Shown: positions 21,326 to 38,300 of the stretch, piece by piece
Position numbering within the stretch: position 1 is the first letter of the stretch
How the letters are laid out: each line of letters starts with the position of its first letter
From: Edaphobacter modestus
Lineage (GTDB): Bacteria > Acidobacteriota > Terriglobia > Terriglobales > Acidobacteriaceae
Reading direction: 5' to 3'
Length of the DNA: 64,000 nt
Assembly (NCBI RefSeq): GCF_004217555.1
Contig: NZ_SHKW01000001.1
Location: 1,984,001 to 2,048,000 of the forward strand
Notes under the pieces: generated by a model
Told to the model about the DNA's origin: nothing
Seen by the model: the letters and a program-made list of their open reading frames with translations, nothing else
Databases searched by the model: none
Position numbers and translations under genes: made by a program

Positions 21326-21765
21326 AAGGCGTACCCTACCGTGCGGTCGCTGCTGTGTTCCCGCAGCAGCAGAGTCACACCACGTCCTTCGGTCGCACGT
21401 GTTGTCCAGCGCGCGTCATCGGACTGCTGCATACTTTTTTGGAGCGGATCAAGCACGAGAGAGTCAACGCGGTAACGGGTCAGTCCGAGCTCAAGCAGGA
21501 CCGAGTTGATCTGTTCGGCTGTGGCTGCGGCCATGCGTTCACGCGACTCCTCCGACAGACCCTCCCTGGCGATCTCGGGGAAAAACTCCTGAAAGCCAAA
21601 GAGTGGATGACCGGCCCATGAGCCTCGGGGTGTTCGCGCCATGATCCCGACGAGCATCAGATATGTCTCCCGTTCATCGGTCTTCTGCAGCAGCCCCTGC
21701 TGCAGGCGCAGAGGAAATGCAATCGACGGACTCGAGAGATTGTCTGCGCGATAAGTTGGGATCAA
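21322..21765 (-). CDS. tssE: TssE, gp25-like baseplate protein
   Basis: The start is TTG 21765, with AGGAG 8 bases upstream, giving 147 residues. The protein has the gp25/lysozyme-like fold signs: FPLRLQQGLLQKTDERETYL near the start, TARTPRGSW-like segment at 48-52, and a C-terminal region of short strands. TssE starts sheath assembly on the baseplate. The family's EPR-type motif is not obvious, so this is a diverged member, called largely from its position before tssF. Confidence 0.75.
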   Translation of the reverse strand: MIPTYRADNLSSPSIAFPLRLQQGLLQKTDERETYLMLVGIMARTPRGSWAGHPLFGFQEFFPEIAREGLSEESRERMAAATAEQINSVLLELGLTRYRVDSLVLDPLQKSMQQSDDARWTTRATEGRGVTLLLREHSSDRTVGYAL

Positions 21766-21866: not shown

Positions 21867-22430
21867 CTAATTGCCCATGGTGATGTCTTTGAAGTTCTGT
21901 TGATTCATCGCCGGCTCAAGCTCCAGCGTCAACAGATGATTGACCGTTGAGTGGCTGGACAGATCCGAATTCCCATCGGGGGTCGATGTCGGCAATGGAT
22001 TTCCCGTCTCAAAGCGGCTAATCCAGCCTTTGAACTTGTAGCTGCACAGAGCGTCCTTCTTCGAGTCATCTTTCCAGTACTCGATCTTCATGTCGACGAT
22101 TTTGTCGCGGGTCACGACATGAGCCAGATCAAAGAGCCGCTGCAACGTGCCGTACGGCACATTCGTGTCATCGTGGAAGTCGATATAGATTTTGATCGCG
22201 GTGGAGAGTGTGCCCATCTCAGGCATTCCCGCGCGATCCTTCAAAGTGGCAAAACGCACTGTGCTGGCCAGCGCGTCAAACTTGTTTCCGTCTACCGTGA
22301 CCGTGCTGCGTAATGGATTCGACATGTGAACAGCCCTCGCTTCTTCCTTTGGTTTTGGCGCTTTTGGTTGAACTTCAGGCGGCCAGTGCAGCAGCTGACG
22401 AAGAGCACGCGAGATAAGGTCAAACCACAT
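21867..22430 (-). CDS. hcp: Hcp-like tube protein (TssD)
   Basis: The protein reads MSNPLRSTVTVDGNKFDALA from an internal Met and then has alternating strands, including KDALCSYKFKGWISRFETGN and VNHLLTLELEPAM, consistent with the tube-forming Hcp/gpV fold. The ATG at 22430 has a near-perfect AGAGGAGG 6 bases upstream and adds 35 residues rich in Lys and Pro; the start at 22325 has only GAGGG at a spacing of 9. I kept the longer form, but an Hcp with an extra N-terminal tail would be unusual. It lies 32 bp after tssC. Confidence 0.75.
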   Translation of the reverse strand: MWFDLISRALRQLLHWPPEVQPKAPKPKEEARAVHMSNPLRSTVTVDGNKFDALASTVRFATLKDRAGMPEMGTLSTAIKIYIDFHDDTNVPYGTLQRLFDLAHVVTRDKIVDMKIEYWKDDSKKDALCSYKFKGWISRFETGNPLPTSTPDGNSDLSSHSTVNHLLTLELEPAMNQQNFKDITMGN

Positions 22431-22462: not shown

Positions 22463-23806
22463 CTACCTGCCCACGGACTCCTGCCTGGATCCCTCAGGAG
22501 TAAACTCTGGCGTATCGATCTTGAGGCGGAAGCTTTCTCCTGGTCCTGTCGGCATCACCTCCAGCTTCAGGTCGCAGATGCCCTGCATCCGCTTGTTCGC
22601 GTCGCGATCGATATCTAATTTGAAGTCGATCAAAGTACCAGCTTCCACCTGCTCCTGGAGCATGCGCATGATCGGCTTCTCGATCGCCTCATCCATGAAC
22701 TCGCGCGTGAGTACCTGCCCGGCTACCTGCAAAAGGTAGTGTCGGCAGCAACGCTCGATGTAACGAATAATGCGATACGAGGTGAAGAACTTATAGACGC
22801 CGTAGGGATCGTCCGCGAGGGTTCTGCAACCGAAGAAGCAGAGTTTATTATCGGCGTCGCGAATGACGGGGATGAGCTGGCGCTCCATGCTGATGTGTTC
22901 CATCTCGCTGATGAGCGGTTCAATCCTTGCCTTCTCAGGTCCGGTTACCTGACCGAAGCGTGAGCCGACCGGTCCCTGCGCCATGCCGGCGCTGTCATCG
23001 GTGCGGGCCACGGCGCCGGCAAAAGCCAACGACGGAGGTCCGTAGAGATCATCCCCATTGTCGATCGTCTTCTCGAACCAGTGTTTCGCACGCAGCTGGA
23101 GATAACCCATGACCACAACATCGGCCGCGGCGCGATCTTCGGGTCGTTTGAGAAATTCGTACTTTCCTCCCGGCCGAAAGTTGCGCTCTACATTCTGAAA
23201 CGATTTTTCGTCGTCAATGTCGGTGATGAGCAGAATGCCCCATTGGTTCGCGATGCTTTCCAGGCGCTCTCGCACCGGCTGACTGATCCAGCCCGGAATC
23301 ACGAGATTGCAGATGTCATCGCGAAAGTTGAAGTTGTCATTGCGCTTTTTGCAGAAGTTCTCCACCGCCGCGATCGTCATGCTATACGCGCCTTTGATCT
23401 CACGGGGATCGGTATTCCAGATAAACAGCTCGATCGGCTTCCGCTGCTTGCCGTCGTAAATTTTTGTGTTCTCGAAGAAGGTTTGCAGCTCGCGATAGCT
23501 TCGCTCAATGGGGCGCAGTTGCGTGAAGACCTGTTCCAGCAGATCGTCGCGGATCTCTTCTGCCTGATTGATCTGCGATTGCAGCTTCGCGAGCGTTTCT
23601 TCAAAGCTATCTTCCCCACTCAGCAATGAGGTGATGTCCGTGAGCTGAGCAAGAAACTCGCGAGCACTCTGCGGCGTGAAGATGGAGGTTATGGAGCGAT
23701 CTTCATCGATCAGCCCAGGATGCAGGTCAGCGAATATCTCCACCAGCACGTCGCGTGCGGGGGTATCTCCCAGAATCTGATTCGTTGACTTCGTGAGCGT
23801 CTCCAT
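22463..23806 (-). CDS. tssC: TssC sheath large subunit
   Basis: The 447-residue protein has the TssC/VipB plan: an N-terminal helical part, RPIERSYRELQTFFENTKIY, SMTIAAVENFCKKRNDNFNF and a C-terminal part with DDPYGVYKFFTSYRIIRYIE and RDANKRMQGICDLKLEV. It forms the contractile sheath with TssB. Start and tssB stop share one base (TAATG), so equal expression of both subunits is expected. It is about 50 residues shorter than typical TssC. Confidence 0.92.
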   Translation of the reverse strand: METLTKSTNQILGDTPARDVLVEIFADLHPGLIDEDRSITSIFTPQSAREFLAQLTDITSLLSGEDSFEETLAKLQSQINQAEEIRDDLLEQVFTQLRPIERSYRELQTFFENTKIYDGKQRKPIELFIWNTDPREIKGAYSMTIAAVENFCKKRNDNFNFRDDICNLVIPGWISQPVRERLESIANQWGILLITDIDDEKSFQNVERNFRPGGKYEFLKRPEDRAAADVVVMGYLQLRAKHWFEKTIDNGDDLYGPPSLAFAGAVARTDDSAGMAQGPVGSRFGQVTGPEKARIEPLISEMEHISMERQLIPVIRDADNKLCFFGCRTLADDPYGVYKFFTSYRIIRYIERCCRHYLLQVAGQVLTREFMDEAIEKPIMRMLQEQVEAGTLIDFKLDIDRDANKRMQGICDLKLEVMPTGPGESFRLKIDTPEFTPEGSRQESVGR

Positions 23807-24306
23807 TATTTTTCTCCTTCTACGACCTTGTCGAGTTCATCGCGCAACTGCTCGAGCGCGGCGATGATCTGTTGGCGCTGTTCCGGATTGCTCCACGCGC
23901 GGCGCACCGCCGGCAGTTTCCAGCGGTCTTTGAGCCGATACATCAGATCGATGTTGTTCTTCAGGTCAGCCAGATCGTTCCGCAGATAAGCCACGGAACC
24001 GTCCTCGGCACGCACCTCCTGGCGAGTCATGATGTTGGAGGGTTCGAAGTCTTTAATGTTGCGAAAACGCAGATCAGCCTGGAACTCCGCCTCCTCCGCG
24101 CCAGCCCTTCCCTTGAACTTCATCTGGGGATTGAACTTCTCAAAGGCATTCTGGAGTGACTCCACCATCTCTGGCTCTTCATTCTCGGTGCGAACCTCTC
24201 GGCTCACCTGCTCTAAGGTCATAGGCATTGTCACCGCGCAGGTGCTTGTGGGGACCTTGCGAACTGAGGGCCGTACACTCTGACGTTTCACTTCGATGAT
24301 CGGCAT
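23806..24306 (-). CDS. tssB: TssB sheath small subunit
   Basis: The 166-residue protein matches TssB/VipA: PQMKFKGRAGAEEAEFQADL, RFRNIKDFEPSNIMTR and a C-terminal helix that pairs with TssC (LEQLRDELDKVV). It lies directly upstream of tssC with a TAATG overlap and 13 bp after the VWA gene. Confidence 0.93.
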   Translation of the reverse strand: MPIIEVKRQSVRPSVRKVPTSTCAVTMPMTLEQVSREVRTENEEPEMVESLQNAFEKFNPQMKFKGRAGAEEAEFQADLRFRNIKDFEPSNIMTRQEVRAEDGSVAYLRNDLADLKNNIDLMYRLKDRWKLPAVRRAWSNPEQRQQIIAALEQLRDELDKVVEGEK

Positions 24307-24319: not shown

Positions 24320-25774
24320 TTAACTCAACCGCGTTTTATTTGGATCGAACTCTGTGACGGTCTGAACAATCGTGTGCTCGCCGGGATTTCGCATCGGTGC
24401 ACGCGCGCCACGGGCCGCCGCCTCGAACCCCGGCGGCGCCCGCCGGAATCCAGGCTGGGCTTCCCTGCGTGACGGAAGTTCAGCACCGGGCCAATACTCC
24501 GGGCGCACAGGCCGCGCAACGCGATTGTCGTAACGCTCGGGCCACAGCAACCGGGGGAGCCCGAACCAAAGGATAGCCAATAGCGCCGCGAAGCCCACAA
24601 AGACAAAGAATGGGCGCAGGAAGAGCAGGGGTGAGCCTCGGTCCATCCGTGCATCTGCCAGGAAGGCGCGCTGTTCGGCCTCTGTCGCTTCCCCTTCAAA
24701 GGAGGGAGTTGCAACCGGCGGTGCAACCCATAGGGCCTGTCTGTTCTCTACCTGAGTTGATCCATCCGGGAGAATAATCTTGGCGCGGAAGTGAACGATT
24801 CGACCTGCGAGCAGCGTACGAGACCCGAGACTCTCTGGAGCCTGGATCGCAACGGTCAGGCTTCCGCTCTGTGAAAGCGGCACAAGCTGAAAGGCCTTGC
24901 GGAGGTCGTTCACGTCGAAGGTGATCAGAGGCGGCCGCGTTCCCAGCCGGGTCATGGCGATCTCATCGATCGACTTTCTGTCGCCGAGCCCTATGGGCAG
25001 AACATCCACTCCGGATTGCTGCACAGCCGCTGTCGCAGCAGCAAGGCCACCCGAACCGGCAAGCAATCCCTGATCGTCTCCAGATTGCGGATGAACATCA
25101 TTAGCGCCGTCTGTCAGCAAAAGGAGACGCGGCGGTTCGCCACCAGGATGATGCTGTTGCCGAAGCACCTCAACAGCCGCACGCACGGCTGAGTACAGCG
25201 CAGTGTTGTTGCGGACCTCGGGCCGAGGCAGTGCGTCCAGCTCTGCCTGCGCCGCGGCACGTGTGCCCACAAAATGCGCCGCAGAGATTGTGCTTTCCAC
25301 GTTATGGCTATCAAACGGAACGATGGCCACGATGTCCTGACCATCGGAGAAATTCTTCAGATACTCCGCCGCTGCGCCCTTTGCGGCATCAAAACGGGAT
25401 TGCCCGTCGAGGTCGCTTTTAAGCATGCTGCCACTCACATCAAAGAGCAGGAGCGCGGTCTGCGGCGGCCTTGCCTTGTCTGTCTCGCCCGCAGTCGCTG
25501 CGGCATAGAACGGCTTCACGGCCTGCCCATCGATCTGAACTTCGACATGCGACGCCAGCTGCTCTGCTGATGGAAGCTGCACATTCACTGGCTTGCCCGT
25601 CGCATCGACGAAATCGAATTTCATCCGAAAACACGGCTCCGCGCCCTCCGGTTCGCATTCGATAAGGGTTGGCTTGGTGAGAAAATCGAGGGAGACGGTT
25701 TGTCCGTGCGCCAAGGTCTGCAGCCATCCTGTGGACACAAAGACGAACGCGGCGATACGGAAAGACTTTGTCAT
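24320..25774 (-). CDS. Exported VWA-domain membrane protein of the secretion block
   Basis: The 484-residue protein has a signal peptide (IAAFVFVSTGWLQTLAHGQ) and a beta domain. A von Willebrand A domain follows with the MIDAS motif DVSGSMLKS, a Thr in LLTDGAND and the downstream Asp. It is followed by a beta-sandwich, one transmembrane helix near residues 385-405 (FFVFVGFAALLAILWFG) and a basic Arg/Pro-rich cytoplasmic tail. It overlaps the upstream FHA gene by 4 bp. With no TssJLM genes present, a periplasmic VWA protein with a cytoplasmic tail is a candidate part of an alternative envelope anchor; that is inference. Confidence 0.8.
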   Translation of the reverse strand: MTKSFRIAAFVFVSTGWLQTLAHGQTVSLDFLTKPTLIECEPEGAEPCFRMKFDFVDATGKPVNVQLPSAEQLASHVEVQIDGQAVKPFYAAATAGETDKARPPQTALLLFDVSGSMLKSDLDGQSRFDAAKGAAAEYLKNFSDGQDIVAIVPFDSHNVESTISAAHFVGTRAAAQAELDALPRPEVRNNTALYSAVRAAVEVLRQQHHPGGEPPRLLLLTDGANDVHPQSGDDQGLLAGSGGLAAATAAVQQSGVDVLPIGLGDRKSIDEIAMTRLGTRPPLITFDVNDLRKAFQLVPLSQSGSLTVAIQAPESLGSRTLLAGRIVHFRAKIILPDGSTQVENRQALWVAPPVATPSFEGEATEAEQRAFLADARMDRGSPLLFLRPFFVFVGFAALLAILWFGLPRLLWPERYDNRVARPVRPEYWPGAELPSRREAQPGFRRAPPGFEAAARGARAPMRNPGEHTIVQTVTEFDPNKTRLS

Positions 25775-26721
25775 CCGCGCAAGCCCTCCGCCTTCTTTGC
25801 GGCAAACATGAGGGTCGTGCGGCCCAGAATGATCAGCGTCTGATCATGGAGCTCGCAGGAAGAGGTGATCGAGCGGTTCTGTACCTTCAGAATGAAGCGA
25901 CGCAACCCCGCCTCCGACATCACATCGGCGTGACGAGTTACATAGAACCGACCGTCTTTGCTGTAGATGCGAGCATGCCGGGGCGCGACTGAGCCATCTG
26001 GAAGATAAATATCTACTTCACGGCCATAAGTCGTCTTCGACAGATCGGCGCTCTGGCTCCCGATCACATAACTATCTCCTTCTTGAATGGACCACTCTTT
26101 CCTGCCGAGCTTGCCTATAGCTCGCGGGTCACCACTGTTGACGAAGCGGAGCACCCCATCGCGGAGAAAGATGGGGGCAAAGGCGATGCCGAAGCTGATG
26201 CCTGCGCCGGTGAGCACGAAGGCGAATGCCTGGGATATGCCGGGAAGCCACTGGCTCATGGTGCCGAAGACGATTCCGCCCAGAAAGCCTCCACACATTC
26301 CTCCCACCATTCCATGCGCGAGACGGGCACGGTTCACTGAAATCCAGCGAGCTCCCAGTCCCGCTCCGATCAGAGCGCCGCTCACCATCCAGCCCAAAAC
26401 GGTGCCGAGAGCAAGCGCTCCAGGAAGTGCGGAACGCAAGGGCAGGTGCAGGACGCCGGACAGCATGCCGGCGCCGATGCCAATTGCAGCTCCCGTCACG
26501 ATCCAGCGGGCCTGCAGGCGATTGCCCGCCCACTTCTCATCGAAAGCTACGGTGAAGCCGCCAATAAAGCCGCCCAGCAACGCAGCGGCGATCATCGCAG
26601 ACGGCCACGCCGGAGCACCTGCCGGTATCAGCAAGACCAGCAGCGCCTGCGAAGCCCATGCGAGTAGACCGGCCATACCGCCTGCGAGCGACATGAAATA
26701 TAAAGTTTGAAAGATATTCAT
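25771..26721 (-). CDS. Polytopic membrane protein with C-terminal FHA domain
   Basis: The 316-residue protein starts with five or six hydrophobic helices within residues 1-190 (LAGGMAGLLAWASQALLVLL, GMVGGMCGGFLGGIVF) and ends in an FHA domain (about 215-310) containing PDGSVAPRHARIYSK, the phosphopeptide-binding loop region. It is the first gene of the minus-strand block and is divergent from the E1-like gene across 284 bp. It is a likely phosphothreonine reader in the membrane, perhaps the docking point for the apparatus. Confidence 0.82.
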   Translation of the reverse strand: MNIFQTLYFMSLAGGMAGLLAWASQALLVLLIPAGAPAWPSAMIAAALLGGFIGGFTVAFDEKWAGNRLQARWIVTGAAIGIGAGMLSGVLHLPLRSALPGALALGTVLGWMVSGALIGAGLGARWISVNRARLAHGMVGGMCGGFLGGIVFGTMSQWLPGISQAFAFVLTGAGISFGIAFAPIFLRDGVLRFVNSGDPRAIGKLGRKEWSIQEGDSYVIGSQSADLSKTTYGREVDIYLPDGSVAPRHARIYSKDGRFYVTRHADVMSEAGLRRFILKVQNRSITSSCELHDQTLIILGRTTLMFAAKKAEGLRG

Positions 26722-27005: not shown

Positions 27006-27899
27006 ATGTTCCATCGAGTTCTGGTTGCCGGTGTGGGTGCACTGGGCTCTGAGGTTGTGAAGAACCTCGGACTTCTGGGCTGTAAGTCGGTACTCCTGGC
27101 CGATGCCGATGTAATCGAAGAAAAAAACATCGCGAAGTCTGTGCTGCTGCGTGAAGGCACTCTCGCCGGTCAAAGCAAGATCTCGTGTTGCCTCGCTCGT
27201 CTGCGCAACTGGTTTCCGCAAACCCACTGGGACGGAGCGGCGGTAGAGATCGCCGACATTGAGCCGGAGCGCTTTCAGGAGGCCGACATTCTTTTCAGTT
27301 GCGTCGACACAGACCTGGCTCGTACGGAGATAGCCGCTCTTTCGGCGAAGTATGAATTGCCGGTCTGCGATGCTGGCCTGGGGGGTACAAGTACTCGCGT
27401 GGGCAGAGTGTCGTGGTTCCCAGGCACACGCTCGGCAGCCTGCTTTGCCTGCCTGCTCAGCAGCAGACGGCGGGCGGCGCTGTTCAGCCTGTGGGAATCG
27501 GAGGTATATGCCTGCTGGGCGCAAGAGGCAGATGCGGAAGACACATGGACGAGCACGCCTACAATGGCCTCTATCGTGGCTGGCCTGCAGGTAGAGCTCG
27601 CTGTCTCTGCCATTAATAACGCAGACGCAGCTTTCTCCGTGCATCTTGACCTCGATCAGGCGCCGGTTTCACGAACGATCCAACATCACCGCAGCGTGGA
27701 ATGTCCTCTGCATGTCGAGGTGCCAGATACTCTATTTCCGATCTGCGCACGCGCCGAGTGCGGACAGTGCGGCAGGCAATTTTCGCCCGACCGGCGCATT
27801 GGCTGGCTACGGCGATGGGGAACCTGCCCTGCCTGCGGAAGCCGCGAGCTGATTGTCCGCGAGAGTCGACATGACCAGCTGGCTGGGACCTTCTCATGA
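27006..27899 (+). CDS. E1-like (ThiF/MoeB/UBA superfamily) adenylating enzyme with zinc ribbon
   Basis: The 297-residue protein has the E1 Rossmann core: nucleotide loop GVGALG (residues 9-14), acidic DADVIEEKN, an Arg in SVLLREGTLAGQSK (Arg49), and SCVDTDLART. Cys146 and Cys149 (SAACFACLL) sit where MoeB/ThiF proteins have CYRC, which may bind zinc or form the thioester. The C-terminal 50 residues add a zinc ribbon (CGQC and CPACG). It would adenylate the Gly terminus of the ubiquitin-like protein encoded two genes later. ATG 27006 has GGAG at a spacing of 8, and it overlaps the next gene by 4 bp. Confidence 0.85.
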   Translation: MFHRVLVAGVGALGSEVVKNLGLLGCKSVLLADADVIEEKNIAKSVLLREGTLAGQSKISCCLARLRNWFPQTHWDGAAVEIADIEPERFQEADILFSCVDTDLARTEIAALSAKYELPVCDAGLGGTSTRVGRVSWFPGTRSAACFACLLSSRRRAALFSLWESEVYACWAQEADAEDTWTSTPTMASIVAGLQVELAVSAINNADAAFSVHLDLDQAPVSRTIQHHRSVECPLHVEVPDTLFPICARAECGQCGRQFSPDRRIGWLRRWGTCPACGSRELIVRESRHDQLAGTFS

Positions 27900-28681
27900 C
27901 GCGAATGCGAAATTACATTCTGCTCGCGGCACTTGGCATTCTTGTCGCGACAGCGCAACTTGTTGCCACGCGGTGGGGGCTCGCTGGCGATCTTGCCGGT
28001 GGCTTTCTTTCCGGAGTCCTCTTGCTGGCGGGCACGCGAGTGCTGATGCTTGAGATCGAAAAGACTTATCTGCTGCCGATCGTGGCGGCAGTTGCCAGCC
28101 TGTCCGGCCTTGCCTTTGCGATGGCCGGATCGGACGTGGCCACGCCGCATATTGCCTGGGTGGCTCCGTTGCTCGCGGCACTTCCGACCGGTATGACAGC
28201 GCTCGTCACTGGCATGCGCGGAAGAAAATGTCAGCTCTGCCGTACGCCTCTGCGCAGGTTCCTCTCTTTCTGCTGCCCACGTTGCCATATGGTCGCCTGT
28301 GAGAATTGTTGGCAGTTTGAGCGGGATCGCTGCCGCCTTTGCGAAGCAAATCAGATTCCACTGTTTCCCATCGATATCTCGTGGTGGCAGCAGTGCTTTG
28401 GCACTCAGGTGCATGGCGGGCGATGCACTCTCTGCCTTCGCGCCGCAGATGGGCGCGTGGCGCAGTGGGCCTGTGCGGGTTGTGGGTATGGCCAGTGCCG
28501 GTCGTGCTGGGACGACAACAATGGCCAGTGCAGCCGGTGCGGATGGATAATTCCGGACCTTCCACCTGAGGTAAGCACACATGCAGTCGCCGGAGCGCAC
28601 CCCCAAACTATAAGCAGATCCATTGCGCAGGAAGATTCGCCGCACAGAAACGCCGACAGAAAGGAAGTTCGCAATGGCTAA
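27896..28681 (+). CDS. Membrane-anchored protein with two RING-like zinc domains
   Basis: Four hydrophobic segments fill residues 6-105. Two cysteine-rich modules follow. The first runs from about residue 112 to 148 and has CQLC, CCPRCH, CENC and CRLC. The second, about 174-214, has CTLC, CAGC, CRSC and CSRCG. Each has four Cys pairs spaced like a binuclear treble-clef RING finger, the fold of most E3 ligases. Position between E1 and ubiquitin-like genes supports a membrane-bound E3-like role, but only the zinc pattern is seen directly. It overlaps the E1 gene by 4 bp and the next gene by 8 bp. Confidence 0.75.
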   Translation: MTRMRNYILLAALGILVATAQLVATRWGLAGDLAGGFLSGVLLLAGTRVLMLEIEKTYLLPIVAAVASLSGLAFAMAGSDVATPHIAWVAPLLAALPTGMTALVTGMRGRKCQLCRTPLRRFLSFCCPRCHMVACENCWQFERDRCRLCEANQIPLFPIDISWWQQCFGTQVHGGRCTLCLRAADGRVAQWACAGCGYGQCRSCWDDNNGQCSRCGWIIPDLPPEVSTHAVAGAHPQTISRSIAQEDSPHRNADRKEVRNG

Positions 28682-28934
28682 ATATCAGATTCTTTTTGAT
28701 ACGGTTCGAGCAGAACAGAAATTCAACGTCGATATTGACGAACAGGAGACGCTGGATGCCACGCTCGATGAGATCCTCTTCGAGCTCAGGGAGCGTGGTG
28801 ACTACCTGAAGGGCGAGGGGCAGCCTCAGGTCGTCTGGAACGGTATGTCGCTCGATTTTTCTGTTCCACTTCCGCAACAGGGCGTGCGTGGGAACGACAT
28901 TCTCCGCGTGTCGACGATCGTGCTGAACGGGTGA
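28674..28934 (+). CDS. Small ubiquitin-like protein ending in glycine
   Basis: The 86-residue protein starts at an ATG with AAGGAAG upstream. Strand-helix-strand order fits a beta-grasp fold: KYQILFDTVRAEQKFNVDID (hairpin), TLDATLDEILFELRERGDYL (helix), then PQVVWNGMSLDFSVPLPQQG and a last strand DILRVSTIVLNG. The stop directly follows the terminal Gly, so the protein would be ready for adenylation without trimming; no JAB-type peptidase is encoded nearby. Only a single Gly is present, as in some bacterial ubiquitin-like proteins. It overlaps the RING-like gene by 8 bp. Confidence 0.75.
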   Translation: MAKYQILFDTVRAEQKFNVDIDEQETLDATLDEILFELRERGDYLKGEGQPQVVWNGMSLDFSVPLPQQGVRGNDILRVSTIVLNG

Positions 28935-28943
28935 TGGGCCGGA

Positions 28944-29513
28944 ATGAATCTTCGTAATCGCCGCATCGACACGGAGTGGCAACTGCTCGCGGCTCTCGCA
29001 GATGCAAACCGCATGACGTTCGCTGCCATCACCCGGTCGGAAGATGAGTTTCGAATCGACATGCGAGAGTCACCGGCCTGGGTTGGAGGAAGACAGGAGC
29101 GGAAGATCGAAACAGCGCACATGCTTCGCTACGTCTACCCTCGCTACTATCCGTCCCTGCCGCTGGAGGGCTATTTTGTCCGTCCCATCTTTCACGTCAA
29201 CGTCGACCTGACGACAGGGTTTGTCTGTCTCTGGCAGAACTATCGGCCAGCACAGACAATCGTGGACGCCATCCTTATTACCCGTGCCATCATGGCCGGC
29301 AAAGTTGCGAATTTGGACGCTGCCCACCGTATGCAGCAGGATGCTGCGCTCGAGTGCGAAGAATCTCCTGCGCTACCGATGATGCCCCTGATGCTGCCAC
29401 CTGCCTGTCGTCCACTCCTGTCTCAGCGACATACCGGCAGGCGACGGCTTACATCCGAGCTCGATCCCCAGGTACCACGAGAGAATAAGTGTGCGATTTC
29501 TAATCCTGAGTGA
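28944..29513 (+). CDS. E2-like ubiquitin-conjugating (UBC fold) protein
   Basis: The N-terminal 140 residues follow the UBC fold: helix TEWQLLAALADANRM, strands with EFRIDMRESPAWV, then HMLRYVYPRYYPSLP (the YPxxxP region), PIFHVNV (the place of the HPN motif) and FVCLWQNY with the candidate catalytic Cys95 followed by Trp97, and a helix with TIVDAILITRAIMAGK. The last 50 residues are Pro-rich and look disordered. It follows the ubiquitin-like gene by 9 bp and overlaps the phosphoesterase by 23 bp. It should carry the ubiquitin-like protein as a thioester; the target is unknown. Confidence 0.8.
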   Translation: MNLRNRRIDTEWQLLAALADANRMTFAAITRSEDEFRIDMRESPAWVGGRQERKIETAHMLRYVYPRYYPSLPLEGYFVRPIFHVNVDLTTGFVCLWQNYRPAQTIVDAILITRAIMAGKVANLDAAHRMQQDAALECEESPALPMMPLMLPPACRPLLSQRHTGRRRLTSELDPQVPRENKCAISNPE

Positions 29514-30231
29514 TATTCACGCCAACTGGGAAGCTTTGACCGCCGTCCTCGAGGACGCAGCGAGTCGGCACTACCAGGCCGTACTCTGCCTCGGCGATGT
29601 TGTGGGTTATGGGCCGAATCCCAATGAAGTTGCGGCCTGGGTTCGCACGCATGCAGATGTAGTCATTCGAGGAAATCACGACAAGGCTTGTTCCGGAAGC
29701 ACGGCCTTCGATTCCTTCAACATGGCGGCGCAGTGCTCTTCGCGCTGGACCAGAGAGGAGCTGCTAGACGACCACAGGCAGTGGCTGCGCAACCTGGATC
29801 GGGGCCCCGTGCTGGTAGAAAACTTTGATCTCGTGCATGGCGCTCCCGATGATGAAGATCGTTACATGTTCCATGAACATGAAGCGGAGGCAGGCCTGCG
29901 GAGTGCGAGCGAGCAGCTTACTTTTTTCGGACACACCCATGTGCAGGGAGGCTTCGTTGGCGAACTGTATCGACGCAGCCTAGAGGTATCTCGCCTGCAC
30001 GCTCTTCCTGATCAGATGGCAATCGTTGTGGATCGAAGATATCTGCTGAATCCCGGCGCAGTGGGGCAGCCCCGTGATGGCAATTCCCGCGCCGCATATT
30101 GCATCTATGATTCGGCGATGAGAATCGTCGAATTCTGCCGGGTAGAGTATGACATCCGCACAGTGCAGGACAAAATACTTGCGGCTGGACTTCCCGAGGA
30201 ACTGGCCTTTCGCCTCGCATCCGGCGATTGA
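29491..30231 (+). CDS. Calcineurin-like metallophosphoesterase
   Basis: The start is GTG 29491, inside the end of the E2 gene. The 246-residue protein has the full metal-binding set: SDIHANWEAL, GDVVGYGPNP, GNHD, HGAP and GHTHVQ. It belongs to the YfcE/MJ0936-like phosphoesterases. As the last gene of the E1-E2 operon beside a locus with a Ser/Thr kinase and two FHA proteins, it may serve as the protein phosphatase that reverses kinase action, in place of the PP2C enzyme found in many T6SS loci. That role is inferred. Confidence 0.88.
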   Translation: MRFLILSDIHANWEALTAVLEDAASRHYQAVLCLGDVVGYGPNPNEVAAWVRTHADVVIRGNHDKACSGSTAFDSFNMAAQCSSRWTREELLDDHRQWLRNLDRGPVLVENFDLVHGAPDDEDRYMFHEHEAEAGLRSASEQLTFFGHTHVQGGFVGELYRRSLEVSRLHALPDQMAIVVDRRYLLNPGAVGQPRDGNSRAAYCIYDSAMRIVEFCRVEYDIRTVQDKILAAGLPEELAFRLASGD

Positions 30232-30238: not shown

Positions 30239-30754
30239 TCATCGGCGATTCGCGACCAGGAATGCGTTCATAGCATCAGCAACTTCACTGTAGCCGGTCT
30301 GGTCGGTTGCGCCTGTTAGGTTTTCGGCGGGTTTATCGACAAGACTCACGTAGAGAAACAGGCTGATGTCCGCCACACCGACTTTGATGCTACGCAGCTC
30401 TGAAAACGGATACTCTTTTGAGCTGATGAGAAATGATAGAAGAGTCTTTCGTACGCTCAAAGCACCTGTATCCGCCGAAAGGGTGATCTGCGTCTTAATT
30501 TGCCCTATCACGCCTAACACCAAAAATGGTCCTGCAATCACAATGGGAATAAGCCAGGTTAACCGAAGGGCGGGATGAATAGGACGGGGCACGTTTTTCC
30601 ACAAAGAAAAAATCACACCATAACCTATCACCAGACACAACAGGCTAACGATCCAAATCCAACCAAAAGAATGGGAATTAAAAGGAGGGGCGACGACAAC
30701 CAATTCATGCGCAGTTTGTGACGCAACGTATAGGTCAGTTGGATATCCAGCCAC
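30239..30754 (-). CDS. Membrane protein of unknown function
   Basis: I chose GTG 30754, which has GGAG 8 bases upstream and lies 5 bases after the stop of the next upstream gene; a GTG at 30778 would overlap it. The 171-residue protein has two hydrophobic helices (WIWIVSLLCLVIGYGVIFSL; LTWLIPIVIAGPFLVLGVIG) followed by a beta-rich cytoplasmic part (ITLSADTGALSVRKTLL, FPFSELRSIKV-like) that resembles the bacterial PH-like domains. It is the last gene of the VgrG block and convergent with the phosphoesterase, 7 bp away. No function is recognised. Confidence 0.7.
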   Translation of the reverse strand: MAGYPTDLYVASQTAHELVVVAPPFNSHSFGWIWIVSLLCLVIGYGVIFSLWKNVPRPIHPALRLTWLIPIVIAGPFLVLGVIGQIKTQITLSADTGALSVRKTLLSFLISSKEYPFSELRSIKVGVADISLFLYVSLVDKPAENLTGATDQTGYSEVADAMNAFLVANRR

Positions 30755-30759
30755 TTTGC

Positions 30760-31551
30760 TCACTCCGCCAGGGTCCACGTGGGTTTCATTTCACGTTCCA
30801 TTTGTTTGCAGCCGAGCTGTGCAAAAATCTCCGCCAAAGGCTGTGCCGACACGATCAGGATACCGCCGTCCTCCGGGCTCTCCCGTATATAAAGCGAGAT
30901 ACCGCGCAATACACTTGTGGTAAACGGTTCCATCGATTCAGCAAGCGCCGCTTTCTCAATCAGTGGCACATACCAGGGAAAGATGCGAAATACACGGTCC
31001 TGAATGAAGCCCAGAAAGAGCCCTTTCAGGTCCCGCAGCAAAACGGCGGTTTCAACATGACTCACAAGCTGCAGTCCGCAACCCGTCCCCAGCATGGTGG
31101 TCATCGCGTCGAGTCTGGCATTTGCGTGAGCCGTCACGCGGAACACAGAATGCAGCATGGGCCCTGTCCCCGAAGCCGACTCTATGTTTTCCATGTCTTC
31201 CATCTTCCACATGCGGGGCGCAGGGCGATGCGGCCACACACCCAGGCCAGCTTCTGGAATCCAGTCACGTGCGTGGTCGGCGAATAGACGGGTTGCTTCC
31301 TGTTCACGCACCTGCCCTACCTGTATAAAGCTCTCATGGCCGCAGCCGAGACGCGCAGTGAAATAAGAGACCAGTTCCTGCAGAAATGCTCGCGCAGGAT
31401 CGTAGGAGTCAGGCCGTAGACCCCGAGGCGCGGGAATGAGGTAGGACTCGAAGCCTCCTTCCTGCCCTTCGAGGCTCAACTCCTTCACAGGAAGATATAT
31501 TCGAATATCTTCCGTATTTTTTGTCGGCAGCAATGGTTGATTGACAATCAA
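30760..31551 (-). CDS. Unknown protein, paralogue of the next upstream gene
   Basis: About 263 residues from TTG 31551, which has GGAGGG about 9 bases upstream; an upstream start at 31611 would overlap the neighbour by 56 bp. The C-terminal part ISLYIRESPEDGGILIVSAQ corresponds to VYINESPEDEGIILACKD in the neighbour, and both share a region with a large helix before it (FIQDRVFRIFPWYVPLIEKA against LEYEGILFVLPKLASQDFF). So the two are divergent copies. No known domain is recognised. Their place right after the spike genes suggests effector, adaptor or immunity roles, which is inference. Confidence 0.65.
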   Translation of the reverse strand: MIVNQPLLPTKNTEDIRIYLPVKELSLEGQEGGFESYLIPAPRGLRPDSYDPARAFLQELVSYFTARLGCGHESFIQVGQVREQEATRLFADHARDWIPEAGLGVWPHRPAPRMWKMEDMENIESASGTGPMLHSVFRVTAHANARLDAMTTMLGTGCGLQLVSHVETAVLLRDLKGLFLGFIQDRVFRIFPWYVPLIEKAALAESMEPFTTSVLRGISLYIRESPEDGGILIVSAQPLAEIFAQLGCKQMEREMKPTWTLAE

Positions 31552-31555
31552 CGAC

Positions 31556-32548
31556 TCAGCCCTCCCAATATCGATATCCCTTACTGCGCATCTCTCCAAC
31601 AATCGATGCAATCAAAGACGTCAAATTGTCTTTGCAGGCCAGGATGATTCCCTCATCTTCAGGGCTTTCGTTGATGTAAACGTCAAAGACTTCGAACCAG
31701 CGGCGAATCTGCTGGTCAGTCTGCGCAAAAAAATCTTGCGAAGCAAGTTTAGGGAGCACAAAAAGTATCCCTTCGTACTCCAGGTCTCGCGGGATCCCGA
31801 CTCCGAATATCTCCTTCGTCTGATCGCGAAAAGGCGACAGCAGAGCCTTAGTTTTCTCCTGCATCTTATCGACATCGAAAACCGAAAATACTTGCTTCAT
31901 GGCAGGATGATTTCGTATAAAGCCAGGTATCTGATTCGGCTTGTGCGGATTGAAATCTTCGAGCAGAATTTTTAATCCCGAGTGATTGCGGAGAAATTTC
32001 GGAATGATCATCTGCGTTTCTGCCGGGGGAGGCGTGGCGGCGATGGTTTCCTCCGCATCTGGCTTCCGGAAAAAAACCGTTAGACCGCCATATCCTAGAT
32101 AACGCCCCCGCAGCACGTCAGCGTCCCTGCCCAAAAACCACCACGCCTGCTGCGGAGCATAATCATACGGACGAAATTCTTTCTTTTTGCTGGCAAGCAA
32201 TTCCACTTCCTGGTCCGACGCCGGGATAGGCTGTTTTCCCCGGGGCAACCAGCACCGTCCCAGCATGGGGTACTCCTTCATCATCGCGTTCAGAAATTCC
32301 TTGCGCAGTTGCTCATTTTCGTCGACGACCTGCATCTGCATGAAATGCTCTGCCTGCAGACCGCTTGCCTCGGATAAACGAGCGGACAGACGGGTAAAAA
32401 ACTCCAACAGCCACTCCCGTTGGCCGCGCGGAATCGATCCAAGGTTCACTGGAATCCAGAAAAGTGAACAGCTGCGCATCGACTCTGCCCAGCGCCAGGG
32501 CAGTAATGTTTTCGAATCTACTCCGAGTATTTCCTCGCTTTTTAGCAT
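31556..32548 (-). CDS. Unknown protein of the VgrG block, with an internal short repeat
   Basis: The 330-residue protein shares the YINESPEDEG motif with the downstream gene. It contains an internal repeat: IPKFLRNHSGLKILLEDF (about residues 189-206) and IPGFIRNHPAMKQVFSVF (about 212-229), each Ile-Pro-x-Phe-x-Arg-Asn-His. The N-terminal 150 residues look globular, with many Trp. No signal peptide or membrane helix is seen. Function is unknown; it is co-transcribed with the spike genes (13 bp from the beta-helical protein). Confidence 0.72.
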   Translation of the reverse strand: MLKSEEILGVDSKTLLPWRWAESMRSCSLFWIPVNLGSIPRGQREWLLEFFTRLSARLSEASGLQAEHFMQMQVVDENEQLRKEFLNAMMKEYPMLGRCWLPRGKQPIPASDQEVELLASKKKEFRPYDYAPQQAWWFLGRDADVLRGRYLGYGGLTVFFRKPDAEETIAATPPPAETQMIIPKFLRNHSGLKILLEDFNPHKPNQIPGFIRNHPAMKQVFSVFDVDKMQEKTKALLSPFRDQTKEIFGVGIPRDLEYEGILFVLPKLASQDFFAQTDQQIRRWFEVFDVYINESPEDEGIILACKDNLTSLIASIVGEMRSKGYRYWEG

Positions 32549-32561: not shown

Positions 32562-33752
32562 CTACATGAACTGGTTGATGGCCCAGGTAACTCCAGCCTG
32601 GATCTTTGCCGGGACAGCCTGGAGGATGCCGCCGAGAAACTTTACGCTGGCGCCGCCGGCATGCGCGGTCGCAACCACGGCTTTACTTGTATTCACGGCT
32701 ACCTTGGCTATAACACCGGCGCCTTGCATACTGACGCCACTCCATCTGTTTTTAGTACAGTCGATCTCATTTTTATTAAAACCGCAGTCCATTTTCTCAA
32801 CGAAGACTGCATTGGTAGTTCCGTTCACTCCATAATTTGCGCCATTCACATCCAATTTAAAAATTGATCCTGAACTGTAAAAACCGGATGTGTAATCCAG
32901 CTTAAGATACCTCTGCCAAGTCCCTTTCATGTCCGCTGCAGTGAACCAGTGGCTCTTGTCCTCGTTCAAATTCGACGGATGTGCATCCACATGGTTATCG
33001 ACCTGCTGCGATACCGCCACATCAATTTCAGTGCGGATCGTCGGACCGACTGTCGTATGCGTATTCTTTCCGGAGATATACATTTTGTGATCATTGCCAA
33101 AAGTCCGGCTGTGATCTCCAACGTAGCTTACAGTCGACTCACTCGTGACCTGCACGTTGGAGTTCCCGGTGACTACCTTCACATAGTTGGAGACAACGCT
33201 CTTGGTATAGTCCCCGATGATGGTTGCAGTAGAGGAACCCTGTACGTGCTTCAGATAATTCGATTGGACCGTTTTGCTATAGATGCCGGTGATGACGTTC
33301 GTCGATGTCCCGGTAATGGTTTTGGTGTAGTCCAGCGCCACGATCTTTGAGTAAAACCCGAAGATGGTGTTGCTCGAACTCCCCGTCACATTTTTTACAT
33401 AGTTGCTAAACACGTTTTTCGTGTAATTCCCTGTCGTATTGATCAGTGAATTCATCATTACGTCTCTGGTGTAATTCTGCATGACCGTGATGTTCTGGTT
33501 CATTTCCACTAGGTAGATCTCATTCATACCGATGGTCACATCCTGGTTCATGCCGATCCGCATGATGCGATTCTGATCTACGTGCAGCTGCTGATCACCG
33601 TGAACCACTGAGACATCCGTGCCTGAATACAGCAATGCGGCTGGAGTATTGATTGCCGCCAAGGTGATGCTCGCCACCGAAGCAACCCTTCTATCGGTCA
33701 CGGGGTCTTTAACGCGCCGCGCCGTCTTTATGCTTCCGTCAAAGACTGCCAT
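32562..33752 (-). CDS. Separate beta-helical spike protein with 24-residue repeats
   Basis: Residues 50-230 of this 396-residue protein are built of repeats. Four successive 24-residue units begin YTKNVFSNYVKNVTG, YSKIVALDYTKTITG, YSKTVQSNYLKHVQG and YTKSVVSNYVKVVTG; each equals three octads of the gp5 C-terminal type. Shorter octads precede them (VEMNQNITVMQNYTRDV). This is the triple-stranded needle normally fused to VgrG, here encoded alone directly after a short vgrG. The C-terminal 150 residues (with CGFNKNEIDCTKNRW and a hydrophobic Ala-rich end) differ and could be an effector or a cap. Repeats are directly visible; assembly on VgrG is inferred. Confidence 0.8.
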   Translation of the reverse strand: MAVFDGSIKTARRVKDPVTDRRVASVASITLAAINTPAALLYSGTDVSVVHGDQQLHVDQNRIMRIGMNQDVTIGMNEIYLVEMNQNITVMQNYTRDVMMNSLINTTGNYTKNVFSNYVKNVTGSSSNTIFGFYSKIVALDYTKTITGTSTNVITGIYSKTVQSNYLKHVQGSSTATIIGDYTKSVVSNYVKVVTGNSNVQVTSESTVSYVGDHSRTFGNDHKMYISGKNTHTTVGPTIRTEIDVAVSQQVDNHVDAHPSNLNEDKSHWFTAADMKGTWQRYLKLDYTSGFYSSGSIFKLDVNGANYGVNGTTNAVFVEKMDCGFNKNEIDCTKNRWSGVSMQGAGVIAKVAVNTSKAVVATAHAGGASVKFLGGILQAVPAKIQAGVTWAINQFM

Positions 33753-33764
33753 GTCTCTCTCCTC

Positions 33765-35360
33765 TTAGTTGCCCACTTCTCGCGACCAGTATTTTGAGTG
33801 AAAATGAATGCGCCCATTGGGGGCGTTGAAGATGAGATCGCCTTCCTCGACGTTCATCACAATCGCAGGACGACCTGTCTCTTCACACTTCTCGTGCAGC
33901 ACCAACTTCGCATGAACGGGCGTCGCAATTCCGATCGACTCCGCGCCTTGCTTATCGATGAGCGAGATGCGATGGCCGCTCTTGGTGACGATTCGCTTCA
34001 CGTCGTTCTCGTGTGTCTCTCCGCCCCAGAAGTCCTCGTTCGGAATGGCGTCCGACATATTCCAGGCCGAGCCCAGGATTACTGGCCTCTCGGGGTCTCC
34101 CTCTTCGAAGGCGACGAGCACCTCATCGCCGACCTCCGGACGGAAAAACAATCCTCGGCCTGCACCGGCATAAGGAGTCAGGTGGCGTATCCATGTGGTC
34201 TGCCCCTGCTCCTGCCAGTAGTACTGTACCTGTACCTGACCCTGTCTCTGAGGATCATCAATGTTAACCACGCGCGCGGAATAGACACCCGCAATCGAGG
34301 GTCGAACGGGATGTGGGTTCGACCGGTACTTTGTCCACGGTGTGCAGTGAAACTGATTTGTATACCCCTCCGGATCCCAGCGATGCACAACACGCACTAT
34401 GTTGTACTTGCCCGCGCCCTCGACAATGCCGTTCGCCTGCACATTCTGTCCCGGAGACAGCGCCTCGCAGCGGCTTATCCCTTCACACAGCAAGCGGCTG
34501 CCGATGGACCACTCCGATTCCTGCTGCAGCGAGGTCTGATAATCGCCGATCGACTTCACCCGGTTACGCCACGGTTTGTATCCAGATTTCAAGACCGATT
34601 TTGCCTGCTGCTTCACTGCGCTGGTAAAGGCATCCACCGCTCCACTCAGCGCCGGATCCTGCGATACCTGCAGGAAACTCTCGCTCTTTGAAGTGGAGAA
34701 ATCGTAGTGGCAGCCATCCATGGAGGCCACACCCAGCGAGCCGCCTACAGTGAACTCAACGAGCCCATTCTTCTGATCGCTACGCCACTGCATGTCAGGG
34801 CCGGCATCGGAGAATCCTGAGTCGATGCGGACACCGTCGTCCGTCGCTACGAGATAAAGTCCAAAATCATCGCAGAGACGCCATAGAAAATGCCAATCCG
34901 TCTCGTCCCACTGCACCAGATCCAACGGGGCTTTTGTGCCGCCCCCGGTCTTCGCGGTTACATTGATCCCGTCGCCGCCACCCATCTGTTGCGCGACATC
35001 GGCCAGCGTGAGCGGTCCGTAATATCTGTGACGAGGCGCAAGATCGAGCTTATAGCTCGCGCTTACCGCCTTGATGATGACGGCGAAGCTGCCGGAGGTC
35101 TGATACGTCAACTTCACATCCAGGACGAAGCCCACGAAGATCTTGATTCCAGATGCTGTCGGCTGCAGTGAGATGGAACGTCCGATCCATCGATCGATCG
35201 GTGGACGGCTGTCCGCAGTCTGGTGAAATTCGATCTCACACCAGGAGTGCCGATTGAGCTCTTTGACCACCTCCACTCGACTCACGGTACCTTGACGTCC
35301 GCTCCAACTTGATTCGAGTTCCGCTCCGTCGATCAGAATATTCAGTGCGATCGCTGACAC
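33765..35360 (-). CDS. vgrG: VgrG-like spike protein (TssI) without a long needle
   Basis: The 531-residue protein has the gp27-like N-terminal part (WCEIEFHQTADSRPPIDRWI, DETDWHFLWRLCDDFGLYLV) and the gp5 OB-fold with the VgrG signature GLFFRPEVGDEVLVAFEEGD followed by PERPVILGSAWN. It ends soon afterwards, at a short beta stretch (IHFHSKYWSREVGN), so the extended beta-helix is missing and is apparently supplied by the next gene. It lies 13 bp from that gene and 23 bp after the kinase. Confidence 0.93.
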   Translation of the reverse strand: MSAIALNILIDGAELESSWSGRQGTVSRVEVVKELNRHSWCEIEFHQTADSRPPIDRWIGRSISLQPTASGIKIFVGFVLDVKLTYQTSGSFAVIIKAVSASYKLDLAPRHRYYGPLTLADVAQQMGGGDGINVTAKTGGGTKAPLDLVQWDETDWHFLWRLCDDFGLYLVATDDGVRIDSGFSDAGPDMQWRSDQKNGLVEFTVGGSLGVASMDGCHYDFSTSKSESFLQVSQDPALSGAVDAFTSAVKQQAKSVLKSGYKPWRNRVKSIGDYQTSLQQESEWSIGSRLLCEGISRCEALSPGQNVQANGIVEGAGKYNIVRVVHRWDPEGYTNQFHCTPWTKYRSNPHPVRPSIAGVYSARVVNIDDPQRQGQVQVQYYWQEQGQTTWIRHLTPYAGAGRGLFFRPEVGDEVLVAFEEGDPERPVILGSAWNMSDAIPNEDFWGGETHENDVKRIVTKSGHRISLIDKQGAESIGIATPVHAKLVLHEKCEETGRPAIVMNVEEGDLIFNAPNGRIHFHSKYWSREVGN

Positions 35361-35383: not shown

Positions 35384-38300
35384 TTATGGGGTATGGCTGA
35401 AACTGTTGAGCGTTACCGACCCTCTGAAGCCGAACCTGCCCGCATCCACATCCTCCGGAAGCCCGGTCCAGTCACTGAGCAGCTTCCATTTATGACCGTC
35501 GCCCAGTGATGTCATGATGTGGCCTGGAAGAATCTGGAGCAGGATCTGATACCTGGACATCGGCGGGAAGATAACTCTGTTTCCATTCGGCACCCTCTTT
35601 CCTGCCTTGATCGTGAAGAGCTCCAGACCGGTCCGATCGAGAGAGAAGAGGAGATAGTTGTTCGAATCACGATAATCTGCAACCCACTCCACCTTCGGCT
35701 TACTGAATAGAAACGCATGACCGATGGATCCGGAAAAGACATATCTGCCGTGACCTGGCTGGGCGTTGTAAAGACCTATATCTGGACTGCTATGCGTCAG
35801 GGTGTGGCTCTGTGCGTCGATTGTCCAGGAAGCGGGCTCCCAACCTGCAATAGACGGAGCCGCCTTGTCGATCGTAATGGGCGCGAGCGCGAGGTTGACC
35901 GGTATCGAACCCTCGGCGGTAACATCTACGGCTTCGGCACGATCGATATAACCGTTTGCACGCGCGATGAAGTGATATCTGCCTTCTGGAAGGTCGAAAT
36001 GTGTGCCGGTCACCGACACTTGTTTTCCGTTCGGCGCATAGACGGTCACATCGCTATCAGCGGGATTCAGTTGCAATGAAACCGTTCCCTCGCCCGTATC
36101 GAGCTTCAGCTCGGCAACATGGGCCTTGTCCTCACCCTCGACGAGATTCACATCCAACACGGCCGCCTTTCCGTGGCGACGAGCTTCAATGTGGTGGGCA
36201 CCCGCCGAAAGCGCCGAAACCAGCAGGACACCATTCGTGCCAGTGGTTCCGGCATCTTTGCCATCCACCAGAATGTTCGCACCAGGCAACGTTCGCACGC
36301 GCAGGGGAATCAAGGCAGGGTTCAGCTTGAGATGAAACGTCACAGTTGTGTTTTGACCTTGCGTGATCACAACCTTCTGTTCGTTGGCAGGCGCCGAAGC
36401 CGAGGTCGTCGCCTGCAAGGTATAGCTGCCGACAGGCAGATCCGCTATATCCAACTTACCGGCGACGCTGGTGCCTTCGTGTATCGTCGTCGTGCCATGT
36501 AACAACTTGAGGCTCACGCCATCAATGTCTGTCAGGACCGTCAACGACCCTGGAGTTGGTGCATTCTCGAAGGTCATCAACAACAGTCGCTCCGAGCCGC
36601 TCGCTACTCTGCTGACCAGAGCACTAAAGTTCTTCCTGGCTACGATCGTATGCAACCCCGCCGGGAGCGCAGTATCCAGACCACTGCTGTTCGTGATGCC
36701 CCTCGCTGCTCCGTCGACCGTGACGGACATCGCAGGACTCGTATATACATGGGCTTGCTGCGAGGCAATGCTTACCAGCAGCGCAGACCCGGATTGGCTG
36801 GCATGAATAGGAGCGGCAAGTATAGCTGGTGCGCCATCACTGACATTCACCTGGAAGGTCGCATCATATCCACCTCGTCCACGCCAGTGGAGCGTATGGT
36901 TGCCGGCAGCGAGTTCGCCGGAAAAAGCTCCCATCGGAAGAGCGACGGCTGGGGCGCCATCCAGACTCAAAGTACCCCGGCCAGCAACACGGAGCTGCTG
37001 GCTTAAAGGTCGTAGCGCAAAATTAATCTCTCCATGGTGTCCCGCAGAGTTGTCGATCGTCTCCGATTGACTCTCATAGCCGCCCAACCGTGCTTCGAGG
37101 CTAGTCTTTCCCTCGGGCATTCTGAAGGTCAGCGTTGGCGCGGCAATACCAATCTCCTGTCCATCGCGCAGGATATGCGCACCGGAAGGAGTCGAGCGAA
37201 CCGTAACGTCCGGAAGTACGGGCGATGCAATGGAGGCTTGCGCAGGCGGCTTGTGCGAAGCCGCTCTATGCCACAGAAACGCACCCACAATCATAAGCAG
37301 AAGTGTCGTGGCGCCAATGGAGAATGCTGGCAGCAGTTTTCTGCTCTGTTTGATCGAGGTCGTTTTCTTCAGAGCAGCGTCGGGACCGGATGAGGCAGTT
37401 GGCTGCGCTGTCGGTACTGCGATCGTATGCAGACGATCACGCAACATGCGCGACTCATTCTGAAACTCTTCGTCGTCCCGGTAGCGTTCCGCAATGCCTT
37501 CAACAGAGGCGATGTGTTCGTGGAGAGAGGGAACACTTACGAGCGTGTCTGCTTCCAGCCTCTTACGACGCACCACCTCAAGATCGCGGCTGCGCAGCTC
37601 GTCGCGGCTTGTATCCATCTCGCGCAGCGCCTGGCGAAGACGGGCGTTGCGTGGATATTCGGCGCATGCGCCTTTGAGCAGGCGGATCGCTCCGCCCAGG
37701 TCGTTGTTGGTACGGAGCTGCCGGGCCTGGGAAAGAAACTCATCTGCCTGCTGGTGCTCGGCCTGTTCGTCCAGAAATCGCAGCAATCCGGTCGCAGCGT
37801 GGTTCCCTTGATCCAGATTCAGGATTTCTTTCAGATAGATCCGGGCCTGCGGCGGATCGCTCTGGCAGGCGCGGGCGGCACGCAGCAACCCTTCAACCAG
37901 CTCTGCCCGGGCTCGCTTCACCTTTGAGCCGATCTCGTAGGCGCTACGCAGCTTCTCCAGGCCTTGCCCGATCACGCCTTCATCCAGGAATTTGCGGCCC
38001 TCGCGAATCTTCCGCTCCGCTTGCTCCGCCAATGCCTGGTGCTGGTGAATATAGGTATGAATCTCCGCAAATTCCGCATCGTTCGGGAATTCCTCAACTG
38101 CGGGCGAGAGAAGGCGTAATCCCTCCTCGAAGTCTCCTGCTTCTACCGCCTGGCTGATCTGCGTGGTCCAGTAGTTCTTGCGAGCCATGCGCTCGCCAAG
38201 CTGCCTCCGCAACCGCACATTCTCTATTTCAAAGCCCAGTCCTGGAAACATCGGATAAATCGTCTGCAGTGTCTCCCACTGCACCAGAGCTTCGCCATGA

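What the first reader, a model, noticed from the sequence alone, without database searches (positions are those of the whole stretch)
27006..30231. Complete ubiquitin-like conjugation operon (E1, RING, Ubl, E2) inside a contractile injection locus
Seen: five overlapping genes encode an E1-like enzyme (GVGALG loop, CFAC), a membrane protein with two RING-like zinc modules, an 86-residue beta-grasp protein ending exactly in Gly, a UBC-fold protein with candidate Cys95, and a metallophosphoesterase. They lie between two minus-strand blocks of sheath/baseplate/spike genes. Known: bacterial E1-E2-Ubl operons, some with RING-like proteins, have been noted in genome surveys, but I know of none embedded in a type VI-like locus. 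Inference: protein modification controls assembly, effector loading or disassembly of the apparatus, or tags an effector before delivery.
Basis: partly seen in the sequence, partly recalled or inferred. Interest (0 to 1): 0.93.

Follow-up and report, generated by a model that had tools for sequence, protein, structure and literature searches.

The report
Ubiquitin-like tagging built into injection machine
In some soil Acidobacteria, a phage-tail-like injection machine is encoded together with a full ubiquitin-like tagging set (activating enzyme, conjugating enzyme, membrane zinc-finger protein and small tag), and the tag is predicted to be attached to parts of the machine, which would control when it assembles or fires.

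Summary
At 27006-30231 lie an E1 (ThiF 1.4e-24), a membrane protein with two eight-Cys zinc modules, an 86-residue beta-grasp protein ending in Gly (pLDDT 90; closest folds SUMO/ubiquitin), an E2 with invariant Asn86/Cys95, and a metallophosphoesterase, inside a type VI-like locus. The link is not chance: in 396 phylum genomes, strong Ubl and strong TssC hits fall in the same 7. In 250 family genomes, Ubl is in 15 and TssC in 17, all 15 among the 17; 13 show both on one stretch, and the rest are cut by contig ends. Two deep locus types both carry the cassette, and one genome has both types, each with its own copy. The tag is nearly as conserved as the sheath; its enzymes change 2-6 times faster. 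One distant genome has the module, with a JAMM protease and a Ubl-GGG-E2 fusion, without this TssC. Unexpectedly, the same genome has a second, canonical T6SS preceded by a different DnaJ-E1-Ubl(GG)-E2-JAMM cassette, found at 3 of 49 DotU loci in the family. E1-E2-Ubl-RING operons in Acidobacteria are in print; I found no report of the injection link, but key papers could not be read. Conjugation and its targets are untested.

The parts
27006..27899 (+). E1-like activating enzyme; candidate catalytic C170, zinc sites C146/C149/C233/H236 and C252/C255/C274/C277
   Evidence: ThiF 1.4e-24; 16 of 17 checked motif positions invariant in 20 E1s, D35 is D or E; zinc-site pairing and C170 role are inferred
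27896..28681 (+). Membrane protein with four hydrophobic segments, a FYVE-like and a RING-like eight-Cys module (predicted E3)
   Evidence: 16 Cys invariant in 79 of 79 aligned; profile match to CNOT4 RING E 0.0061; model pLDDT 90.0; weak VIA matches; homologue P0222 passes the Prok-RING_2 cut-off; the window protein itself has no Prok-RING match at E<=1
28674..28934 (+). 86-residue ubiquitin-like protein ending ...VLNG
28944..29513 (+). E2 (UBC fold), Asn86 and Cys95
   Evidence: UQ_con 5.1e-5; N86 and C95 invariant in 11 of 11; 118 of 120 listed homologues (of 434) match the motif pattern
29491..30231 (+). Metallophosphoesterase, type A loci only
   Evidence: Metallophos_2 5.1e-18; absent from L014 and other type B loci
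25771..26721 (-). FHA-domain membrane protein, divergent neighbour of E1
   Evidence: FHA 2.1e-5 over cut-off; five hydrophobic segments, canonical phospho-binding residues (recalled motif) not conserved
24320..25774 (-). VWA-domain protein with one hydrophobic segment near the C-terminus
   Evidence: VWA_2 2.3e-11
23806..24306 (-). TssB-like sheath small subunit
   Evidence: T6SS_VipA 3.8e-6
22463..23806 (-). TssC-like sheath large subunit
   Evidence: PF17541 TssC 5.7e-24
21867..22430 (-). Likely Hcp-like tube protein (by position; sequence match not significant)
   Evidence: Best PDB match Bacteroidales TssD at E 0.96
16954..21765 (-). Baseplate block: TssK-like, TssG-like, TssF-position (Baseplate_J 0.0023, under cut-off) and TssE-position proteins
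   Evidence: the TssE-position protein has no Pfam match
14306..16936 (-). ClpB/ClpV-type AAA ATPase
   Evidence: ClpB 7.9e-280 and TssH 4e-217, both under their curated cut-offs
30239..32548 (-). Three proteins without a Pfam match over cut-off, next to the cassette in type A loci
32562..35360 (-). gp5 C-terminal trimer protein and VgrG
   Evidence: PF22178 1.5e-9; Phage_base_V 3e-25
35384..40285 (-). Ser/Thr kinase with PEGA and TPR regions
   Evidence: Pkinase 1e-43

Best explanation
The four genes encode the parts of a ubiquitin-like conjugation cascade that is predicted to attach its 86-residue tag to components of the injection machine encoded around it, and so would likely gate assembly or firing at the inner membrane. 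Shown by sequence, model or survey: E1, E2, Ubl and RING-like components with intact motif residues; linkage to this TssB/TssC system in every family genome whose assembly can show it; shared descent by locus; a tag nearly as conserved as the sheath. Inferred: E1 adenylates the Ubl's C-terminal Gly and holds it on Cys170; it passes to E2 Cys95; the membrane RING-like protein brings E2~Ubl to a substrate lysine beside the FHA and VWA membrane proteins. These may serve as the envelope platform, because 9 of 15 genomes with the locus have no TssL (DotU) match. The partner gene that is a phosphoesterase in type A and a kinase in type B suggests a phosphorylation switch upstream. A sheath or baseplate protein as substrate is the least secure step.
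For: Motifs. Fold. Linkage: strong Ubl and strong TssC hits in the same 7 of 396; 15 Ubl genomes inside 17 TssC genomes of 250; 17 linked loci in 16 genomes. Co-inheritance: two locus types; G545 has both, and each copy groups with its own type in E1, E2 and TssC trees; distance correlation of TssC with E2 0.91, Ubl 0.93, RING-like 0.94 (no shuffle control). Rates: Ubl dN is 0.6-2.6 times that of TssB/TssC, while E1, RING-like and E2 are 2.3-5.9 times that of Ubl. No DotU in 9 of 15. A second, different Ubl cassette precedes a canonical T6SS in three genomes. Ubl-GGG-E2 fusion plus JAMM in G276.
Against: No conjugate, thioester or substrate has been seen. G276 has the module without this TssC. 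No JAMM gene lies in the window locus, although JAB proteins occur elsewhere in G000. The slow Ubl rate fits any modifier with many partners, and for the three closest relatives Ubl is 1.2-2.6 times faster than the sheath; its mean tree distance (1.08) exceeds TssC (0.51) and TssB (0.72), partly through uncertain starts. The FHA phospho-site looks degenerate. The second cassette type is optional: 3 of 49 DotU loci. The E2 is under the Pfam cut-off and RING/FYVE matches are weak.
Confidence: 0.5

Rival explanations
1. Cargo tagging: the Ubl is attached to an effector or tip protein as a loading signal, or is delivered with it.
For: The cassette lies beside the spike-side genes (gp5 trimer, VgrG) in type A loci.
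Against: The conserved neighbours in both locus types are FHA, VWA, TssB and TssC; the genes on the spike side diverge fastest (dN up to 0.77 for 30239-30778 against L013) while Ubl does not.
Confidence: 0.17
2. Turnover: the tag marks contracted sheaths or misassembled parts for disassembly by the ClpB/ClpV-type ATPase of the locus.
For: A Clp-type ATPase is encoded in the locus.
Against: The ATPase scores under both the ClpB and the TssH cut-offs; canonical T6SS loci manage without such a cassette in 46 of 49 cases.
Confidence: 0.13
3. Non-covalent or sulfur-carrier use: the Ubl works as a structural subunit (as YukD-like domains do in type VII secretion) or a sulfur donor, and is not conjugated.
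For: ESX-5 EccD ubiquitin-like domain is among the fold matches; the Ubl is conserved like a structural part.
Against: An E2 with invariant Cys95/Asn86 and a RING-like partner are always present, and a carrier or subunit would not need them.
Confidence: 0.1
4. Passenger phage-defence operon of Bil/CBASS type that happens to sit in the locus.
For: Bacterial Ubl operons are mainly discussed as phage defence (passages of PMC12687455); the E1 has weak PADLOC E1-E2 and BilD matches.
Against: A passenger should come and go; here presence, order and descent follow TssC. E2, Ubl and RING-like protein match no PADLOC model at E<=0.1.
Confidence: 0.07

Closest known systems
Prokaryotic E1-E2-Ubl-RING operons (Burroughs, Iyer and Aravind 2011, not read; Pfam Prok-RING_2)
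   Same: Same component list; PMC4197634 (passages) says bacteria including Acidobacteria carry related operons, citing that work; homologue P0222 passes the Prok-RING_2 cut-off.
   Different: Fixed inside a contractile injection locus; Ubl ends in NG, not GG; no JAMM in the operon; two zinc modules on a four-segment membrane part.
Bil, Bub and CBASS E1-E2 systems
   Same: E1 adenylation fold, E2, beta-grasp tag (Bil, Bub).
   Different: No PADLOC match for E2, Ubl or RING-like protein; RING-like partner present; linked to injection genes. Bub operons are described as associated with CapW, CapH+CapP or CapK+CapS (PMC13373217 passages); regulators of those kinds were not looked for here.
Caldiarchaeum subterraneum ubiquitin operon
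   Different: That cluster has an Rpn11-like deubiquitinase and no injection genes are mentioned in the passages seen.
T6SS phosphorylation control (PpkA-Fha-PppA; recalled)
   Same: FHA protein and kinase genes near a T6SS-like locus; a PP2C beside the module in G276.
   Different: A Ubl cascade is added; the FHA phospho-site looks degenerate.

Membership tests
E1/ThiF activating enzymes | Nucleotide-binding GxGxxG, D/N/K/D adenylation residues and a cysteine before the last helix | tested here: met
   ThiF 1.4e-24; 16 of 17 positions invariant in 20 E1s; activity not testable
E2 conjugating enzymes | UBC fold with catalytic Cys and HPN-type Asn | tested here: met
   UQ_con 5.1e-5, under the curated cut-off; N86/C95 invariant in 11 of 11; fold not modelled
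Ubiquitin-like modifiers | Beta-grasp fold with an exposed C-terminal Gly | tested here: met
Ubiquitin-like modifiers | Covalent attachment to a substrate | not testable with these tools
   Needs biochemistry
RING E3 ligases (Prok-RING_2) | Binuclear cross-brace zinc domain of RING type | tested here: inconclusive
Bil / CBASS phage-defence systems | Match of the E2 and Ubl to PADLOC models | tested here: not met
   No match for E2, Ubl or RING-like protein at E<=0.1; E1 weak, best 1.2e-10 to E1-E2
Type VI secretion system | TssB/TssC sheath, TssK, TssG, VgrG | tested here: met
   NCBIfam T6SS models are all under their cut-offs
Type VI secretion system | TssL (DotU) | tested here: not met
   No match in 9 of 15 genomes with the locus, single-contig G283 included; in G000 and G545 the DotU found lies at another T6SS
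Type VI secretion system | TssM (IcmF) | tested here: inconclusive
   No IcmF_C match in G000 or G283, but that model also missed the TssM of G000's second T6SS (IcmF-related_N 1e-46)

The most novel reading that the evidence does not exclude
A bacterial ubiquitin-like system is a built-in regulator of a contractile injection machine: a membrane ligase complex stands in for the missing canonical base and places a tag on the machine's own parts to license assembly and firing. Acidobacteria recruited Ubl conjugation to injection machines at least twice, with different cassettes.
Probability: 0.4. Interest if true: 0.95.

Novelty: new variant of a known kind. Interest (0 to 1): 0.87.

Why it matters
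Studied bacterial ubiquitin-like conjugation systems are mainly discussed as phage defence (PMC12687455 passages). This would be a steadily inherited role in controlling a secretion nanomachine, and a natural RING-bearing bacterial cascade for studying how E3 function arose.

Tried and rejected

Second-cassette survey: 47 further DotU loci were fetched (7 divergent, 40 ordinary) besides L050 and L064. One (L074) has the DnaJ-E1-Ubl-E2-JAMM cassette; an E1-like hit in L086 overlaps TssC and was set aside as spurious. Several stretches are cut by contig ends and only relatives of the queries used would be seen. The second E2 matched 20 of 297 genomes; flanks of 10 were fetched. L064 has T6SS genes, L065-L073 (nine, L065 only 4.5 kb) gave no Tss match, nor did L051; the rest were not examined.

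Literature: Burroughs 2011, two Corbett-laboratory papers, Chambers 2024 and Hor 2024 are not held, so an earlier mention of the injection link there cannot be excluded. Ten searches ran; I saw listings with titles and abstract starts, and passages of PMC11354881, PMC1779556, PMC4197634, PMC3482391, PMC12687455, PMC13373217 and PMC12355090. None of these reported the link.
Full report

SETTING. On the other strand to the left lie the FHA membrane protein, VWA, TssB, TssC, a probable tube protein, baseplate genes and a ClpB/ClpV-type ATPase; to the right three unassigned proteins, a gp5-trimer protein, VgrG and a kinase-PEGA-TPR protein. Nine of the 15 family genomes with the Ubl have no DotU (TssL) match. 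IcmF_C also gave none in G000 and G283, but that model missed the TssM of G000's other T6SS, so absence of TssM is not established.

IS THE LINK REAL? E2 is in 7 of 61 relatives and TssC in the same 7 of the 26 same-genus genomes that I gave to the TssC search. In a phylum sample of 396, strong Ubl and strong TssC hits fall in the same 7; the eighth Ubl (G276, 1.3e-22) and eighth TssC (G245, 1.3e-7) are weak and in different genomes. In a family sample of 250, Ubl is in 15 and TssC in 17, all 15 among the 17. In 13 of 15 both lie on one fetched stretch; in G602 and G621 they are on separate short contigs. In the two extra TssC genomes the contig ends at the FHA gene (G615) or inside TssC (G631). 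With genus relatives this makes 17 linked loci in 16 genomes. Type A loci have the phosphoesterase after E2; type B loci have a protein kinase gene there (Pkinase 9.4e-27 to 7.9e-29 in the three scanned). G545 has one of each, and each copy groups with its own type in E1, E2 and TssC trees: inheritance by locus, not only by species.

RATES. Where computable, every dN/dS is below 1. Ubl dN is 0.6-2.6 times that of TssB or TssC over five relatives, while E1, RING-like protein and E2 run 2.3-5.9 times faster than Ubl. A tag held nearly like the sheath is expected if it touches conserved machine parts, but also of any modifier with many partners, so this supports rather than proves a machine target.

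THE EXCEPTION. G276, a distant acidobacterial assembly of 950 contigs with no match to this TssC, has PP2C, E1, RING-like protein, one ORF of Ubl-GGG-E2, a Prok-JAB protease (7.5e-12), and the FHA-like and VWA proteins; no injection gene was seen in the 16 kb fetched of a 20.5 kb contig. So the module includes the FHA and VWA proteins and can exist without the sheath genes; a fusion through GGG beside a JAMM protease suggests that a free Gly end matters.

A SECOND CASE. On contig C7 the same genome has a canonical T6SS (TssK 1.3e-37, DotU 1.6e-26, IcmF-related 1e-46, ImpA 1.2e-29, VipA 2.6e-52, VipB 8.9e-137) preceded by DnaJ, E1 (8.4e-52), a Ubl ending in GG (YukD 1.4e-5, just under cut-off), E2 (UQ_con 5.6e-6, just under cut-off) and JAB (4.8e-12). 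Its TssC and E2 show no significant BLASTP similarity to the window's, its Ubl none at all, and only the E1 aligns (31% over 207 columns). The same order occurs in G225 and G527. Of 49 DotU loci in 45 of 250 family genomes, 3 carry this cassette. Ordinary T6SS loci therefore mostly lack such a cassette, whereas the window type has it wherever the assembly can show it.

HOW IT LIKELY WORKS. E1 activates the Ubl Gly, E2 takes it over, and the membrane RING-like protein would direct it onto a machine component at the inner membrane, licensing assembly or firing, with the kinase or phosphoesterase as an upstream switch. All of these steps are inferred. Cargo tagging, turnover, non-covalent use and phage defence are the rivals.

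KNOWN AND NEW. That Acidobacteria carry E1-E2-Ubl-RING operons is in print (PMC4197634 passages, citing Burroughs 2011, which is not held). In ten library searches and seven papers seen in passages I saw no report of the injection link; the key papers could not be read.

Noticed in passing
L050:6408-19779 (G000 contig C7); also L064 (G225) and L074 (G527): A second, canonical T6SS in the same genome is preceded by a different DnaJ-E1-Ubl(GG)-E2-JAMM cassette; the same order occurs in two other family genomes.
   Followed up: partly
L044:1650-9041 (G276): PP2C, E1, RING-like protein, a single ORF Ubl-GGG-E2, a JAMM protease, FHA-like and VWA proteins, with no injection genes in the 16 kb fetched.
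   Followed up: partly
L051:8544-13891 (G283): A further E1-JAB-membrane protein-zinc protein-E2 run in a genome that also has the window-type locus; no T6SS gene match in 20 kb.
   Followed up: no
window 41001-44209: Two adjacent phage-integrase-family genes flank the injection locus beyond the kinase.
   Followed up: no
window 49548-52940: A metallo-beta-lactamase-fold gene (Lactamase_B 3.8e-6) next to a subtilase gene (2.1e-31).
   Followed up: no
window 30239-32548: Three unassigned genes beside the cassette diverge fast in some relatives (dN up to 0.77 against L013); function unknown, possibly tip or immunity genes.
   Followed up: no
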